A stretch of 64,000 nt of DNA, taken from the NCBI GenBank assembly GCA_903871875.1, contig CAIQIR010000158.1, positions 1-64,000 of the forward strand. Reading direction: 5' to 3'. The notes below the pieces were generated by a model that was not told the DNA's origin, did not search any database, and was given only the letters and a program-made list of their open reading frames with translations. The stretch comes from an uncultured Schlesneria sp. (lineage in GTDB: Bacteria; Planctomycetota; Planctomycetia; Planctomycetales; Planctomycetaceae). Both the position numbers and the translations under genes were made by a program. The number at the start of each line of letters is the position of its first letter. Within the stretch, counting starts at the first letter, position 1. Positions 43,582 to 48,317 of this stretch are shown in pieces.

Positions 43582-44763
43582 CTAAGCGGCAGTGGAATGG
43601 CTGTCCGTTTTGCTGGACTTGTCCAGCCACCCCAAAATGACTTCCGCCGTTCGCCGTGTCGCACCCGTGGTGTGCACGCGATGACGCAATTCATCCAGTT
43701 CCGCCGTCGCCGCGGCCAGTGAAGCCGGGTTGCCCAGCCATTCGCCGATATCGGAAACGATCGCGTCGACAACCGGCTTGGGATTCCCGACACTGAACCG
43801 TTCAGGCATGATTTTCCGTCCGGCAATCAGATTGGGCAGTGACCAGTATTTGCAGACAATCACGATGCAGCCGACGAAGTAGGTGAACCAACTGGATCGG
43901 TAGAGCGCCACAAACGGCGTTCTCCGCGCCAGCATTTCCAGGCTAACGGACCCGGACACCATGACGGCACAATCTGCGATTTCGATGATTTCGGGAGTTT
44001 TCCCCACGAAGAACGACAACGGCAGGGTCTGTTGCAGCTTTTCGTACTCGGCCACGCAGAACTGTCGTTGGGTTTCCTTATAGTTGGCGATCAGAAAGTT
44101 GACCTGCGGAAATCGGGCATGCAATTGCTGGACAATACTCAGCAGCAGCGGCCAGCAACGATGGACTTCTTGTTTGCGTGATCCGGGAAGAATGGCGACG
44201 GTGCGCGTGTCGCTGGCCGTCCATTCGCGGCAGAACGAATCGTCCAGCTGATGGTCGGCAACTTCGTCGAAAAAGGGGTGACCGACATACATGACGGGGA
44301 TGCCTCGTTCGGCGTACCAGTCGGTTTCGAACGTCAATCCCGACAGAACCAGATCGACATATTTCCGCACGCGGCTGATTCGCCACGAACCCCATGCCCA
44401 CAATTGGGGCGGCATGTAGTAGATCACGGGGATTCCCGCCGCTTTGGCCTTACGGGCGATCCACCAATTGAAGCCCGGAAAATCGACCAGCACCACCACG
44501 TCCGGTTTGTGGCGTTGGAAATAGTCTTCCGCCTGTTTCACCAGCTGATAGAACTTCCAGATCAAGGGCAGCACGGCGATCACACCCATGACGGCCATGG
44601 ATGTCAGGGGAAACAGCAGATGGCAACCGGCTTGTTCCATCGCCGAACCACCAAAGCCTGAAATCCTAAGGTCGGGACGTCGACGAGTCAGTTCGTTGAT
44701 CAAATGCGCGGCATGATGATCGCCGCTGGGTTCGCCGACCGAGAAAAAGATATGCATATTCAA
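43582..44763 (-). CDS. lpxB: Lipid-A-disaccharide synthase
   Basis: 393 aa, full length for LpxB, the GT-B glycosyltransferase (GT19) that joins UDP-diacylglucosamine and lipid X on the inner face of the membrane in lipid A synthesis. Motifs: IFFSVGEPSGDHHAAHLI at the start, ISGFGGSAMEQAGC, VVLVDFPGFNWWIARKAK, YYMPPQLWAWGSWR, VGHPFFDE, VAILPGSRKQEV, and SGSVSLEMLARRTPFVALY. Its presence supports a Gram-negative-type outer membrane. No other lpx genes adjoin. The second ATG two codons in may be the start. Confidence 0.95.
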   Translation of the reverse strand: MNMHIFFSVGEPSGDHHAAHLINELTRRRPDLRISGFGGSAMEQAGCHLLFPLTSMAVMGVIAVLPLIWKFYQLVKQAEDYFQRHKPDVVVLVDFPGFNWWIARKAKAAGIPVIYYMPPQLWAWGSWRISRVRKYVDLVLSGLTFETDWYAERGIPVMYVGHPFFDEVADHQLDDSFCREWTASDTRTVAILPGSRKQEVHRCWPLLLSIVQQLHARFPQVNFLIANYKETQRQFCVAEYEKLQQTLPLSFFVGKTPEIIEIADCAVMVSGSVSLEMLARRTPFVALYRSSWFTYFVGCIVIVCKYWSLPNLIAGRKIMPERFSVGNPKPVVDAIVSDIGEWLGNPASLAAATAELDELRHRVHTTGATRRTAEVILGWLDKSSKTDSHSTAA

Positions 44764-45091: not shown

Positions 45092-45364
45092 ATGTCTCAG
45101 GCTGTTGTCGATCCGATCGAACTGCGGCGCTTTGCGGCGCTACTGCGTGACTTTACTACCGAACTGCAAAGCCGGTTGAGTGCCGTTAACGGACAATTGA
45201 ACGGACTCAGTCAGAGCTGGCGCGATCAAGAACATCTCAAATTTGCCGACGAGTTTTCCCAGCACCTGAAGCTGCTCGCCCGTTTCATCGAAGCCAACGA
45301 ACAGCATGTGCCCTACTTGATGCGGAAGGCGGAACGGATCGAAGAGTATCTGTCCCAGAAATGA
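45092..45364 (+). CDS. WXG100-like small helical protein A
   Basis: 90 aa from the ATG at 45092, with AGAGG 6-7 bases upstream; the frame is open further upstream but without similarity. Size and pattern fit the WXG100 (ESAT-6-like) superfamily: a first amphipathic helix (PIELRRFAALLRDFTTELQ), a turn centred on SQSWRDQEHLKFADEF (W-R-D in the W-x-G position), then a second helix (FIEANEQHVPYLMRKAER). There is no signal peptide. WXG100 proteins form helical hairpin dimers and are secreted by FtsK/EccC ATPases; no such ATPase is seen here. It is first of three tightly packed genes; the next product shares the YWRDQEH motif. Confidence 0.72.
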   Translation: MSQAVVDPIELRRFAALLRDFTTELQSRLSAVNGQLNGLSQSWRDQEHLKFADEFSQHLKLLARFIEANEQHVPYLMRKAERIEEYLSQK

Positions 45365-45442
45365 TTCGCGGCACGTTGCCACCCAAGATCGTCGATCGTT
45401 CAGGGGCGATTGATCTCACGTGGGAAATATCGGAGACACACG

Positions 45443-46081
45443 ATGCCGGGACAACAGGGAGCCAGCGTCCAAACCGTGGATGCTTTGAAAGATGTGCGGA
45501 TGGCCCTGATCAAGTTTCAAGAGCGAGCCACGACTGCCATGGGCGATTTGCGGCAGAAGATCGATCGGACCGTGGGCTGGCTGGAACTGGATCGTCCCAG
45601 TTACTGGCGGGATCAGGAACATAAGACCTATGACCTGGTTGCGACCACGCGAGTGGCCTACGAAACCTGTCGTTTGCGGACGGTCGGTGGCCGGCGATCA
45701 GACTGTATTGAAGAAAAGAAGGCGTTTGAGCGAGCCAAAATACGGATGGAATATGTTCGCGAAAAACAACAGGCGGTCAGAAAGTGGATGGTGCAGGCCG
45801 GCCGCGAAGCGAATGAATATCGGGCTCGGACCAGTACTTTTCAGCGAACACTGGAGAATGACGTGACGTTGATGATCGCTCAATTGGGGCGCATGATCGA
45901 CGCCATCGAAGCTTACTCGGAAACCCGTGTTTCCCCCGCCGACTCAACGCCGCTCGTCGTTTCGTCAGCGGCCGCGGATCAAGCGGCGACCACGAATCCA
46001 CTCACGGCCGAAGCGTCTCGACCTGACAGTGTAGAAGCCGATCAGGCCTCGAGCCAACCGCGGACGGACTTTCATGAGTGA
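45443..46081 (+). CDS. WXG100-like helical protein B with charged C-terminal tail
   Basis: 212 aa from the ATG at 45443 (GGAG 8 bases upstream). Residues 10-70 repeat the pattern of the preceding protein: a helix (VDALKDVRMALIKFQERA), then RPSYWRDQEHKTYDL with the same WRDQEH core. A long charged helix follows (EKKAFERAKIRMEYVREKQQ), then VMLIAQLGRM-like helices and a disordered Ala/Ser/Glu tail of about 45 residues. No signal peptide or membrane segment. It lies 78 bp after protein A and overlaps the next gene by 8 bp (ATGAGTGA), so the genes are probably co-translated. The partner relationship with protein A is inferred from the shared motif. Confidence 0.7.
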   Translation: MPGQQGASVQTVDALKDVRMALIKFQERATTAMGDLRQKIDRTVGWLELDRPSYWRDQEHKTYDLVATTRVAYETCRLRTVGGRRSDCIEEKKAFERAKIRMEYVREKQQAVRKWMVQAGREANEYRARTSTFQRTLENDVTLMIAQLGRMIDAIEAYSETRVSPADSTPLVVSSAAADQAATTNPLTAEASRPDSVEADQASSQPRTDFHE

Positions 46082-47450
46082 TTCGAACCCGGTTTCCGGT
46101 CAGCCGATGACGTCGGGGCTCACGTCCTACACGTGTCCCGGTGAGCTCTATTCCATTCCTCGCGGAATCCATCTGGCGCGGTTGGCCGCTTTTTACGCAA
46201 AGTGCCAGGACTGCGAGCATCGGTTCGATACTGGTCAGGCCCTTTCCTCAAACGAGCTGCCGCGAACAGCGGAACATCGCACGGTCCGTACGACCCTCTT
46301 GACCGACGAGAGTGTTCGTGGAGTGTACTTGAACGAGTTGGATCGCAATCGGGCCTTGTTGTGGGGTGAAGCGTTGGCTTCGTCTCTCTGGGATCAGCAG
46401 CCCATGATCGGTCGCCGAGCACCGACCGACAACTCGCAGATCATCGCCGAACAAACGCGCGTCGTCCACGCCGCAATGCCCACCGTTCCCACGGTCGTCG
46501 TCGGCTTCGACGAACGGCCCTCGTCACCCGATATCGTCACGGGCGTCGTGCTGGGCCTGCGACGCATGGGGTGTCCCGTGGTCGATCTGGGACAAACGGC
46601 ATTGCCGGTTGTGGCGTTCAGCGTGCATGCGTTGCAGGCGGCCGCCGGTTTGTTTGTCACGGGCGCCGGCTGTGATCCCTCTTTGACCGGTTTCGAGTTT
46701 CTTGAACGCGGTGCCCGTCCGTTTCCAGAGGCCAGTTTGCTCGAACTGGAACGCCTGGTGAAAACGGGTGTGGGACGGCAGACCCGTCAGATTGGCTCGC
46801 ACCATCCTCAGCAAGGGCAATCGCCCTATTTCGCGACCCTGGAATCGCATTTTCATGCTTTAAGGCCCCTGCGGATTGTGTGTGGTTCAGTCACCCGTTT
46901 TCTGCCGCGAGTGCTGGATCAATTGTTCGCGAAACTGCCCTGTACGCTGACGCATGTTCCCCTGCCCACGCGGCGACGCAATCTGTTTGATGCGCGCGAT
47001 GTGGATTTGCATCGCGTGGCGACGACGGTGGTCGAAGGGAACCATCATTTGGGAATGCTGATCGACGAAGATGGGCGACACGCGGCCTTCGTCACCGATC
47101 GAGGGCGTCTGGTTTCGCCGCGGGAAGTGGCTCGATTGTTGATCGAGATCACTCAGCGAGAACAACGCGGTGCCCCCTTCGTTGTTTCCAGCTCGTTGTT
47201 CCACGATGCGGCGAAATGGCTGGAAGGTCGTGAGGCCCGTGCGATCGATGGAGGCGAGTCGGCCGCAGACCTGGTGCGACTGCTGATGGAACACGAAGCC
47301 GCGATGGCATTGTCAGCCGATGGTCGGGTCTGGTTTCGCGATGCCTATCCCGCCTGCGACGCGCTATTGGTGCTGGCACATGTCCTGCAAGCCCTCAGTT
47401 TCAGCGACACTCCGTTTTCGGACGTGGTGGCTCGCATCAGCGACGATTGA
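46074..47450 (+). CDS. Phosphohexomutase-like protein lacking catalytic motifs, with N-terminal Cys cluster
   Basis: 458 aa. The N-terminus (residues 20-60) has CPGELYSIPRGIHLARLA, then KCQDCEHRFDTG: a possible zinc-binding C...CxxCxH cluster. From residue about 75 the layout follows alpha-D-phosphohexomutases: VRGVYLNELD, TVVVGFDERPSSPDIVTGVV (normally a GxDxRxSS...), then the active-site loop, usually TASHNP, reads VTGAGCDPSLTGFEF with the phosphoserine missing. The metal loop, usually DxDGDRxxxxD, reads LIDEDGRHAAFVTDRG. The last domain (ADGRVWFRDAYPACDALLVLA) recalls the C-terminal domain that binds substrate phosphate. I infer a pseudoenzyme, perhaps a sugar-phosphate sensor or scaffold. 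Co-translated with the WXG-like genes. Confidence 0.75.
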   Translation: MSDSNPVSGQPMTSGLTSYTCPGELYSIPRGIHLARLAAFYAKCQDCEHRFDTGQALSSNELPRTAEHRTVRTTLLTDESVRGVYLNELDRNRALLWGEALASSLWDQQPMIGRRAPTDNSQIIAEQTRVVHAAMPTVPTVVVGFDERPSSPDIVTGVVLGLRRMGCPVVDLGQTALPVVAFSVHALQAAAGLFVTGAGCDPSLTGFEFLERGARPFPEASLLELERLVKTGVGRQTRQIGSHHPQQGQSPYFATLESHFHALRPLRIVCGSVTRFLPRVLDQLFAKLPCTLTHVPLPTRRRNLFDARDVDLHRVATTVVEGNHHLGMLIDEDGRHAAFVTDRGRLVSPREVARLLIEITQREQRGAPFVVSSSLFHDAAKWLEGREARAIDGGESAADLVRLLMEHEAAMALSADGRVWFRDAYPACDALLVLAHVLQALSFSDTPFSDVVARISDD

Positions 47451-47495
47451 CGATCTTCCAAAATTCTAACCTGTCACAAATTAGGACGAAAACAA

Positions 47496-48317
47496 ATGTC
47501 CCTGCTGCGTGGAAAAACATTGTTCATTACGGGGGCCAGTCGCGGGATCGGAAAAGCAATTGCACTACGAGCGGCCCGCGACGGTGCGAATGTCGCCGTG
47601 GTGGCCAAGACCGATTCGCCGCATCCGAAATTGCCAGGGACTGTGCATACGTCCGTCGAAGAGATTGTCGCTGCCGGTGGCCGGGGACTGGCCTGTGTCG
47701 CGGATATTCGTTCCGAAGAACAGGTTCAAGCGGCCGTTGATCAGACGGTGGCAACGTTTGGCGGCATCGATATCCTGGTTAACAACGCCAGCGCCATTCA
47801 ATTGACCGGCACCGTTGAGACCGAGATGAAGCGATTTGACCTGATGTATAGCGTCAATGTCCGCGGCACGTTTCTTTGCTCGAAGCTGTGTATCCCGCAT
47901 CTGCGACGCGCGGCGAATCCGCATATTCTGAATATCTCGCCACCTCCCAGTCTTGACGCACGCTGGTTCAAAAACCATGTCGCCTACACGATGTCAAAAA
48001 TGGGGATGAGTCTCTGCGTGCTGGGGATGTCGGCCGAACTGGCGGATGCCGGAATCGCCGTCAATGCGCTCTGGCCGCGAACGATCATCGCCACGGCGGC
48101 GGTGCAAAATCTGTTGGGCGGTGATCAGGTGATCGCACAGTCCCGTAAGCCCGAGATCATGGCCGACGCCGCCTATGCTATCCTGGGCCGCCCCAGTCGC
48201 AGCGAGACGGGGAAATTCTTCATTGATGACGAGGTTTTGACGAGCGAAGGCGTGACGAACTTCGCCGATTATTCTGTCGTGCCCGGTGCCACGCTGCTGA
48301 GCGATTTGTTCATTTAG
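47496..48317 (+). CDS. Short-chain dehydrogenase/reductase, HSDL2-like
   Basis: 273 aa, 45 bp after the mutase-like gene on the same strand. Classical SDR: TGASRGIGKAIALRAARDGA (cofactor GxxxGxG), then the HSDL2-type AKTDSPHPKLPGTVHT, NNASAIQLTG, a strand ILNISPPPSLD (Ser) and YTMSK (catalytic Tyr and Lys). Animal HSDL2 is peroxisomal; bacterial forms are cytoplasmic NAD(P)-dependent reductases of unknown or fatty-acid-related substrate. It ends convergently to the radical SAM gene. It may be part of the WXG/mutase operon. Confidence 0.92.
   Translation: MSLLRGKTLFITGASRGIGKAIALRAARDGANVAVVAKTDSPHPKLPGTVHTSVEEIVAAGGRGLACVADIRSEEQVQAAVDQTVATFGGIDILVNNASAIQLTGTVETEMKRFDLMYSVNVRGTFLCSKLCIPHLRRAANPHILNISPPPSLDARWFKNHVAYTMSKMGMSLCVLGMSAELADAGIAVNALWPRTIIATAAVQNLLGGDQVIAQSRKPEIMADAAYAILGRPSRSETGKFFIDDEVLTSEGVTNFADYSVVPGATLLSDLFI

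What the first reader, a model, noticed from the sequence alone, without database searches (positions are those of the whole stretch)
45092..48317. Two WXG100-like proteins co-encoded with a catalytically degenerate phosphohexomutase
Sequence shows: 90- and 212-aa helical proteins share a WRDQEH core after a helix. The second overlaps by 8 bp a 458-aa protein with phosphohexomutase layout whose phosphoserine loop (VTGAGCDP instead of TASHNP) and metal loop (DEDGR instead of DxDGDR) are broken, and which carries an N-terminal C/CxxC/H cluster. An SDR follows at 45 bp. Known: WXG100 proteins are helical hairpins often exported by ESX-type systems, but no FtsK/EccC ATPase is here. Inference: the two small proteins form a heterodimer handled or sensed by the pseudo-mutase, possibly a planctomycete-specific secretion or regulatory system.
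Basis: partly seen in the sequence, partly recalled or inferred. Interest (0 to 1): 0.72.

Follow-up and report, generated by a model that had tools for sequence, protein, structure and literature searches.

The report
Split planctomycete type-VII-like secretion cassette
The two small genes are half of a four-gene protein-export-like kit that most of these bacteria keep, here broken up and scattered around the chromosome, while the enzyme-like gene beside them is a neighbour brought in by a chromosome rearrangement.

Summary
The genes are real. A (45092-45364, 90 aa) is a WXG100-family protein. B (45443-46081) is not WXG100: it is modelled as a long helical hairpin with a disordered tail. C (46074-47450) is a degenerate phosphohexomutase that also lacks domain IV.

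The trio is not a unit. In relatives A and B belong to a cassette A-B-D-E: D is a small hairpin with an ESX-like predicted fold, E a 1274-1552-aa membrane-anchored EccC-like ATPase with one central P-loop. Of 59 genomes 44 have all four, 12 none, 3 a part. They stay co-inherited where scattered, as in this genome (D and E on other contigs).

C's usual neighbour is holA. In a Schlesneria subclade C sits beside A-B (9 of 9) and D beside holA (7 of 9), as one inversion would give.

Plasmid relatives of the cassette carry a longer protein in place of B; one is a WHH-type nuclease with a SUKH gene. B's profile matches two of four such proteins, and B shows no toxin domain.

Best reading: a type-VII-like exporter, vertically inherited in Planctomycetia, perhaps derived from a toxin-delivery cassette. 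The kind is known from a table footnote (Zhang 2012); this is a new variant. Export itself is inferred.

The parts
45092..45364 (+). gene A: WXG100-family helical hairpin, 90 aa, WRD at the expected turn
   Evidence: Pfam WXG100 above cut-off; 34 sequences, the window's included, align without a gap over 90 columns, W43 R44 D45 invariant; PDB profile match HP0062 1.1e-9, then EsxB and EsxA. A itself was not modelled
45443..46081 (+). gene B: long helical hairpin (helices 12-78 and 89-161) with a low-confidence, disordered-looking tail 162-212; possible nuclease-less relative of the effector-slot protein of plasmid cassettes
   Evidence: AlphaFold2 model, mean pLDDT 85.8; follows A in 65 of 80 named loci; B profile matches the Rhodococcus slot protein at 2.1e-7 and the Caballeronia one at 0.0021, the other two of four not; 0 of 2909 controls at E 0.05 or better
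46074..47450 (+). gene C: degenerate phosphohexomutase with N-terminal Cys/His cluster and no domain IV; neighbour by rearrangement, not judged part of the system
   Evidence: degenerate loops, alignment to PMM ends at residue 356 of 463; reciprocal junction with holA

Best explanation
A and B are two of the four components of a type-VII-like export cassette (A-B-D-E) of Planctomycetia. [quoted passage not shown] A and D are small helical hairpins that act as targeting or co-export partners. B is a long helical hairpin, the carrier that in plasmid-borne relatives of the cassette is fused to a nuclease or other domain; in Planctomycetia it ends in a disordered tail. The likely action, by analogy with the LXG-Lap1-Lap2 complex, is that A, D and B form a helical bundle that E recognises and drives across the inner membrane. 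Shown: the families, the gene order, the co-inheritance, the architecture. Partly shown: the B-slot resemblance. Inferred: complex formation, transport and its direction. In the window's Schlesneria subclade the cassette has been split: an inversion with one breakpoint between B and D and the other between C and holA would put C next to B and D next to holA, and E lies elsewhere. C is therefore a neighbour by rearrangement, perhaps now translationally coupled to B, and not an ancestral partner.
For: Gene order over 80 named loci: ABDE 49, ABD 6 (in 4 of these the contig ends within 760 bases of D), AB 4, A alone 15, ABC 6, with the window a seventh ABC. Same 59 genomes: A 46, B 46, D 45, E at 1e-100 or better 45 (at the tool's own 1e-3 it counts 58, since other FtsK-type proteins then match); all four in 44, none in 12, partial in 3 (G004 89% complete, G028 78% complete, G037 without A). 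Three of the 12 are also under 90% complete (G016, G024, G030). Co-inherited though dispersed: single-contig genome G003 has A-B at 5.89 Mb, D at 3.74 Mb, E at 0.88 Mb; G018 has A 2.50, B-D 4.30, E 5.92 Mb. E profile against PDB: EccC 5e-35, EccC5, YukB, and only later FtsK at 1.5e-8; one P-loop in 47 of 47; two membrane-like segments in 45 of 47. D of L175 modelled with pLDDT 92.5, W31-x-D33 at the turn; its six best fold matches are all ESX proteins, though E >= 0.47. Window A finds only 2 of 72,556 plasmid records (E 0.01), and both stand among the first five listed for E. Helicobacter plasmid: A, WHH nuclease, SUKH protein, 77-aa protein, E. B against three hand-cut slot hairpins: hhalign probability 92%, P 5.6e-7. 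Inversion: C divergent from holA in 17 of the 25 C-bearing genomes of the family outside the subclade; in the subclade C beside A-B in 9 of 9 and D divergent from holA in 7 of 9.
Against: No known membrane partner was found among those sought: YukC/EssB 0 of 59 over cut-off, YukD in 8 of 59 and not beside the cassette. Window A has no YxxxD/E or HxxxD/ExxhxxxH export arm (read from P0001). No LXG protein in 59 genomes, and no effector candidate. B-slot homology is modest and coiled coils mislead: the B profile misses the Helicobacter nuclease protein and the Deinococcus one, and gives 0.045 to a Rhodococcus A-like protein that is not in the slot. The D profile misses the Caballeronia and Helicobacter proteins in D's place and gives the Rhodococcus one 0.13, while it matches the Caballeronia A-like protein (2.5e-6) and a 144-aa Deinococcus protein (2.3e-6). 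Profile links A-B, A-D and B-D within Planctomycetia are weak or nil. The 8-bp B-C overlap is kept in 6 of 9 genomes, which could mean that C does matter. D in G003 is not beside holA, G004 has no D, and C is not seen beside holA in 8 of the 25 genomes, so the inversion is the simplest of several possible histories.
Confidence: 0.66

Rival explanations
1. One reading: A and B form a dimer handled or sensed by the pseudo-mutase C as one functional unit.
For: A-B-C are adjacent in 9 of 9 genomes of the subclade and C keeps an ATG 8 bp inside the end of B in 6 of those 9.
Against: C is adjacent in only 6 of 80 named loci, is kept without A, B, D and E in six genomes of the family, and is divergent from holA in 17 of 25. 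The reciprocal D-holA junction explains the adjacency.
Confidence: 0.08
2. A-B-D-E is an intracellular machine, not an exporter: a membrane-anchored FtsK-like translocase for DNA or for envelope assembly, with A, B and D as regulatory coiled coils.
For: No secretion partners found among those sought, no LXG effectors, FtsK relatives among the weaker matches. Related ATPases without membrane segments sit in CoCoNuT restriction loci, and their authors expect a different mechanism (PMC11090510).
Against: E is far closer to EccC, EccC5 and YukB than to FtsK; A and E are both present or both absent in 56 of 59 genomes; a plasmid version carries a nuclease with an immunity-type protein.
Confidence: 0.24
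3. A mobile toxin-delivery cassette that merely happens to be common in planctomycete genomes.
For: PMC3482391 calls such solo-WXG plus ATPase sets mobile versions of T7SS; related cassettes lie on plasmids of Caballeronia, Helicobacter, Rhodococcus and Deinococcus.
Against: The E tree follows the families: f1 27 rows and f3 6 rows each on one side of a branch, all labels together 5 changes where 4 is the least possible (quick method; f2 needs 3 changes and f4 2). No confirmed relative in viral contigs. B tails look disordered by composition (65 B proteins), and a Pfam scan of 26 B proteins showed no toxin family among the 25 listed.
Confidence: 0.07

Closest known systems
Solo WXG plus three-domain YueA-like ATPase sets of diderms (Zhang et al. 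2012, PMC3482391, table footnote 6; 12 passages seen)
   Same: [quoted passage not shown] planctomycetes are named there.
   Different: Described as solo WXG and as seemingly mobile. Here the set also has B and D, its E tree follows the families, and it is split in this genome.
EssC-like ATPase plus two WXG100 proteins plus coiled-coil nuclease of type III-A CoCoNuT loci (PMC11090510, passages seen)
   Same: Central-only active ATPase with N-terminal coiled coil, two WXG100-type small proteins, and a coiled-coil protein in the set.
   Different: There the ATPase lacks membrane segments and the coiled coil carries a nuclease; here E has two membrane-like segments in 45 of 47 and B shows no nuclease.
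HP0062 and HP0066 of Helicobacter pylori (PMC3397514 and PMC4978471, passages seen)
   Same: HP0062 is the best solved relative of A, also with WRD at the bend, and is clustered with an FtsK/SpoIIIE-domain protein.
   Different: The neighbours of HP0062 were not compared here; whether B and D counterparts exist there is untested.
LXG-Lap1-Lap2 complexes of T7SSb (PMC9600955, passages seen)
   Same: A long helical carrier with two small helical partners handed to an EssC-type system.
   Different: Analogy only: no LXG domain in 59 genomes and no EssB over cut-off.

Membership tests
WXG100 (PF06013), gene A | score over the curated Pfam cut-off | tested here: met
   31.3 bits against 27.3; 34 of 34 family members match at E 0.1 or better
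WXG100 (PF06013), gene A | Trp at the turn, followed by x-Gly | tested here: inconclusive
   Trp invariant, but Asp instead of Gly in 34 of 34; HP0062, which its authors liken to the ESAT-6 family, has the same WRD. Filed by profile score, not by the literal WXG
WXG100 (PF06013), gene A | C-terminal export pattern YxxxD/E or HxxxD/ExxhxxxH | tested here: not met
   read from P0001; pattern as given in PMC3935865. Not what Pfam's score cut-off rests on
WXG100 (PF06013), gene B | profile match and Trp at a hairpin turn | tested here: not met
EccC/EssC orthologue, protein E | score over NCBIfam EccCa, EccCb or EssC equivalog cut-offs | tested here: not met
   102 bits against 509 for EccCa with G000's E; the second E tested also falls short. 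Relative, not orthologue
T7SSa or T7SSb | EssB/YukC and EsaB/YukD present with the ATPase | tested here: not met
T7SSa or T7SSb | EccB, EccD, EccE, MycP, EssA, EsaA | not tested
   no search was made for these; no further gene family lies near A in more than 14 of 80 named loci
diderm solo-WXG T7SS (Zhang 2012) | WXG protein plus three-domain ATPase active only in the middle | tested here: met
   the P-loop count was tested, the three domains are inferred from length and EccC alignment
diderm solo-WXG T7SS (Zhang 2012) | mobile, solo WXG | tested here: not met
   E tree follows the families; B and D are regular partners. Hence filed as a variant
LXG effector system | LXG domain PF04740 | tested here: not met
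   0 of 59 genomes; the control rings in Bacillus subtilis
phosphohexomutase, gene C | catalytic Ser loop, DxDGDR metal loop, domain IV | tested here: not met
   read by eye over 24 C sequences: HN of the Ser loop lost in 24, Ser itself kept in 4; third Asp of the metal loop lost in 24; the window's C ends before domain IV
protein exporter | E-dependent export of A, B or D | not testable with these tools
   needs experiment

The most novel reading that the evidence does not exclude
Planctomycetia domesticated a toxin-delivery type-VII cassette: the nuclease was lost from the carrier B, which now ends in a disordered tail, and the machine became a vertically inherited housekeeping exporter of a diderm class, kept or lost as a four-gene unit even where its genes are scattered over the chromosome.
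Probability: 0.33. Interest if true: 0.8.

Novelty: new variant of a known kind. Interest (0 to 1): 0.6.

Why it matters
The type VII papers seen here deal mostly with Gram-positive bacteria and mycobacteria. A four-gene version found in most sampled diderm planctomycetes offers a small system for asking what an EccC-like motor and WXG100 partners do without the other known parts, and whether such machines need a toxin at all. The window also shows how an operon-like overlap can arise from a rearrangement, a caution for guilt by association.

Tried and rejected
A and B as WXG100 paralogues: the iterated search that merged A, B and D was judged profile drift, because later direct comparisons were weak and B's model has another fold. 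B's PDB profile match to MHC class I (best E 1.6e-4 over 34 residues) was rejected as a chance match of a helical stretch. B's fold search listed mainly generic coiled coils, best E 0.07; LapA3/LapA4 came at rank 30. Further cassette genes: 104 other families recur in 3 or more of the 80 named loci, the largest in 14. The largest, an AMP-binding/aminotransferase fusion, is the gene just upstream of A in 14 loci; of the others identified by Pfam, DUF1501 and ABC transporters lie at scattered distances and a beta-barrel porin (BBP7) is in 9 loci. None downstream of E recurs widely. Viral origin: 21 pattern matches, none confirmed. D beside E in the window's subclade: not found; D was then located on other contigs. 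Two further loci with E-like proteins gave no clear A or B: L267 (only a weak D-profile match, 0.0022) and L268 (none), so the plasmid comparison rests on four of six loci looked at, with A-like proteins in all four (weakest 1.4e-5). In Rhodococcus the order is E, slot, small, A, and in Deinococcus E comes first, so the slot is a position only in Caballeronia and Helicobacter. The hhalign of B with slot hairpins used three hand-cut proteins and left the Helicobacter one out. The C-x(4-18)-C-x2-E motif is in 38 of 65 B, in 3 of 4 slot proteins and in 122 of 2791 background ORFs: suggestive only. G000's own E has one loose second P-loop-like match at 1021 besides the canonical one.
Full report
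What is there. The window holds A (90 aa), B (212 aa), C (458 aa) and an SDR, at the stated coordinates and with the stated 8-bp overlap and 45-bp gap. A passes the Pfam WXG100 cut-off. B matches nothing in Pfam or NCBIfam. C passes the Pfam cut-off for phosphohexomutase domain I but stays below the cut-offs of all five NCBIfam mutase models that it matches. The SDR is an ordinary PRK08278-type enzyme and fell in no shared cluster of the other neighbourhoods compared.

The family of A. 34 sequences, the window's included, align over 90 columns without a gap, with W43 R44 D45 and the C-terminal Y86 and Q89 invariant. Their profile finds, among solved structures, first HP0062 of Helicobacter pylori (1.1e-9, also WRD) and then EsxB and EsxA proteins. 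Among 59 genomes of the class the Pfam family is found in 48, in most of them once; the more exact profile finds A in 46.

The real cassette. In relatives A is followed by B, then by a 68-87-aa protein D, then by E, a 1274-1552-aa FtsK/SpoIIIE protein. Of these 80 loci 49 read A-B-D-E, 6 A-B-D, 4 A-B, 15 A alone and 6 A-B-C; the window is a seventh A-B-C. The six are Schlesneria MAGs, the nearest 96% identical in A, so the window is from a Schlesneria-like planctomycete. Over the same 59 genomes A is in 46, B in 46, D in 45, and E, at 1e-100 or better, in 45: all four in 44, none in 12, partial in 3, two of these from assemblies under 90% complete; three of the 12 are also under 90%. In the window's genome A-B are on C158, D on C166 and E on C79. 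In two single-contig genomes the parts lie more than a megabase apart (G003, G018). Joint retention without linkage argues for joint function. The number of independent losses was not counted.

What the parts look like. E's profile matches EccC (4nh0, 5e-35), EccC5 and YukB ahead of FtsK (1.5e-8), but the two E proteins tested stay under the EccC/EssC equivalog cut-offs. Each of 47 E proteins has one GxTGSGKS P-loop, at residue 761-896, and 45 of 47 have two membrane-like segments between residues 171 and 340. G000's own E is an open frame of 1402 aa, with the canonical P-loop at 787, a loose second match at 1021, and three membrane-like segments by the same measure. D, of L175, is modelled as a two-helix hairpin (pLDDT 92.5) whose six best fold matches are all ESX proteins, though with E of 0.47 or more. 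B is modelled as two long helices, 12-78 and 89-161, and a low-confidence tail; both conserved Trp lie within the first helix. A was not modelled.

Why C is next door. Outside the subclade 25 genomes of the family have C (matches of 1.6e-10 or better). In 17 it is divergent from holA (DNA polymerase III delta; Pfam): 11, and G021, G026, G030, G031, G035 and G036 from the coordinates. In the subclade G000-G007 plus G014, C is beside A-B in 9 of 9, while D is divergent from holA in 7 (G003 has D elsewhere, in G004 D was not found). One inversion with breakpoints B|D and C|holA gives both new junctions with the observed orientations; E must have been separated by a further event. The 8-bp overlap of B and C is present in 6 of 9; in G001, G005 and G014 the first in-frame ATG of C is 456-494 bp beyond B. 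C itself is a pseudo-mutase: its alignment to phosphomannomutase stops at residue 356 of 463, the Ser-loop HN is lost in 24 of 24 by eye, and C21, H33, C44 and C47 are at least 85% conserved. It is present without A, B, D and E in six genomes.

A clue to function. Window A finds two of 72,556 plasmid records at E 0.01, in Caballeronia and Helicobacter, and both are among the first five listed for a relative's E. The Helicobacter plasmid reads A, WHH/HNH nuclease, SMI1/KNR4 (SUKH) protein, 77-aa protein, E. The Caballeronia plasmid reads A, 436-aa protein, 113-aa protein, 76-aa protein, E, then a CARF protein and VWA, phosphatase and kinase genes, close to the TerY-P and CoCoNuT neighbourhoods of the literature (PMC4978471; PMC11090510). 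Rhodococcus and Deinococcus plasmids have the same kinds of genes in another order. The profile of B matches the Rhodococcus slot protein (2.1e-7) and weakly the Caballeronia one (0.0021), but not the Helicobacter or Deinococcus ones; a Rhodococcus A-like protein scores 0.045, and 0 of 2909 control sequences reach 0.05. hhalign of B with three slot hairpins, Helicobacter left out, gives 92%. The D profile misses the Caballeronia and Helicobacter proteins in D's place but matches the Caballeronia A-like protein at 2.5e-6, which fits D being WXG100-like. By eye the Rhodococcus and Caballeronia proteins have nuclease-like C-termini, but Pfam finds none. The tails of 65 B proteins are rich in disorder-type residues (median 44 aa, longest 135, lowest fraction 0.70 among tails over 20 aa); they were not each searched for domains, and the Pfam scan was of 26 B proteins.

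Mechanism. Most likely E is an inner-membrane motor that recognises a helical bundle of A, D and B, as proposed for EssC and LXG-Lap1-Lap2 (PMC9600955), and moves it out of the cytoplasm. The families, order and co-inheritance are shown; complex and export are inferred. Against it stand the lack of EssB (0 of 59 over cut-off), of YukD beside the cassette, of LXG effectors and of an export arm on A. The rival of an intracellular machine keeps 0.24.

Known and new. In what I saw, the kind is in print for planctomycetes as one footnote: they and others have solo WXG domains with an ATPase whose middle domain alone is active, seemingly mobile (PMC3482391). PMC11090510 cites an earlier study (Anantharaman 2012, not seen) for a stand-alone WXG100/FtsK-like operon. 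A 2024 survey names T7SSc-j in Bacillota and Actinomycetota only; planctomycet is not in its text (PMC11217815, passages seen). Searches for WXG100, type VII secretion, EssC, or ESAT-6 with FtsK, each with planctomycet(es), gave 1, 9, 2 and 1 papers; of these I saw passages of PMC4631099 and PMC3482391 and the rest only as listings. The library lacks most subscription journals. To my knowledge new here are the regular partners B and D, the joint inheritance despite dispersal, the E tree that follows families (quick method; G041, G055 and G019 on long branches, f2 and f4 not single), the toxin-less B, and the inversion that made the trio.

Noticed in passing
L143, L144, L145 (genomes G050, G058, G046): A second B-D-E set in three genomes of one family, without an A found beside it; its E proteins group together with G037's on a starred branch.
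   Followed up: partly
window 46074-47450 and L081, L082, L085-L088, L090, L092-L094, L096: The pseudo-mutase C with a conserved C21/H33/C44/C47 cluster is divergent from holA in 17 genomes; its function is unknown and worth its own study.
   Followed up: partly
G037, G042, G046, G050, G052, G058: YukD-like ubiquitin-fold proteins in one family (and in G006 and G026), away from the cassette; with what they work was not examined.
   Followed up: no
L233:4152-7808 and 13 other named loci: The gene just upstream of A is an AMP-binding, carrier-protein and aminotransferase fusion in 14 of 80 named loci, same strand (Pfam run on one of the 14): shared synteny that fits vertical inheritance, possibly a functional link in that group.
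   Followed up: partly
L268:2496-8484: A Rhodococcus plasmid has an EccC-like ATPase beside Hsp70, TPR and GrpE genes, with no recognisable A or B.
   Followed up: no
window 43582-44763 (-): Looks like lipid-A-disaccharide synthase LpxB by eye, as expected of a diderm; not searched.
   Followed up: no
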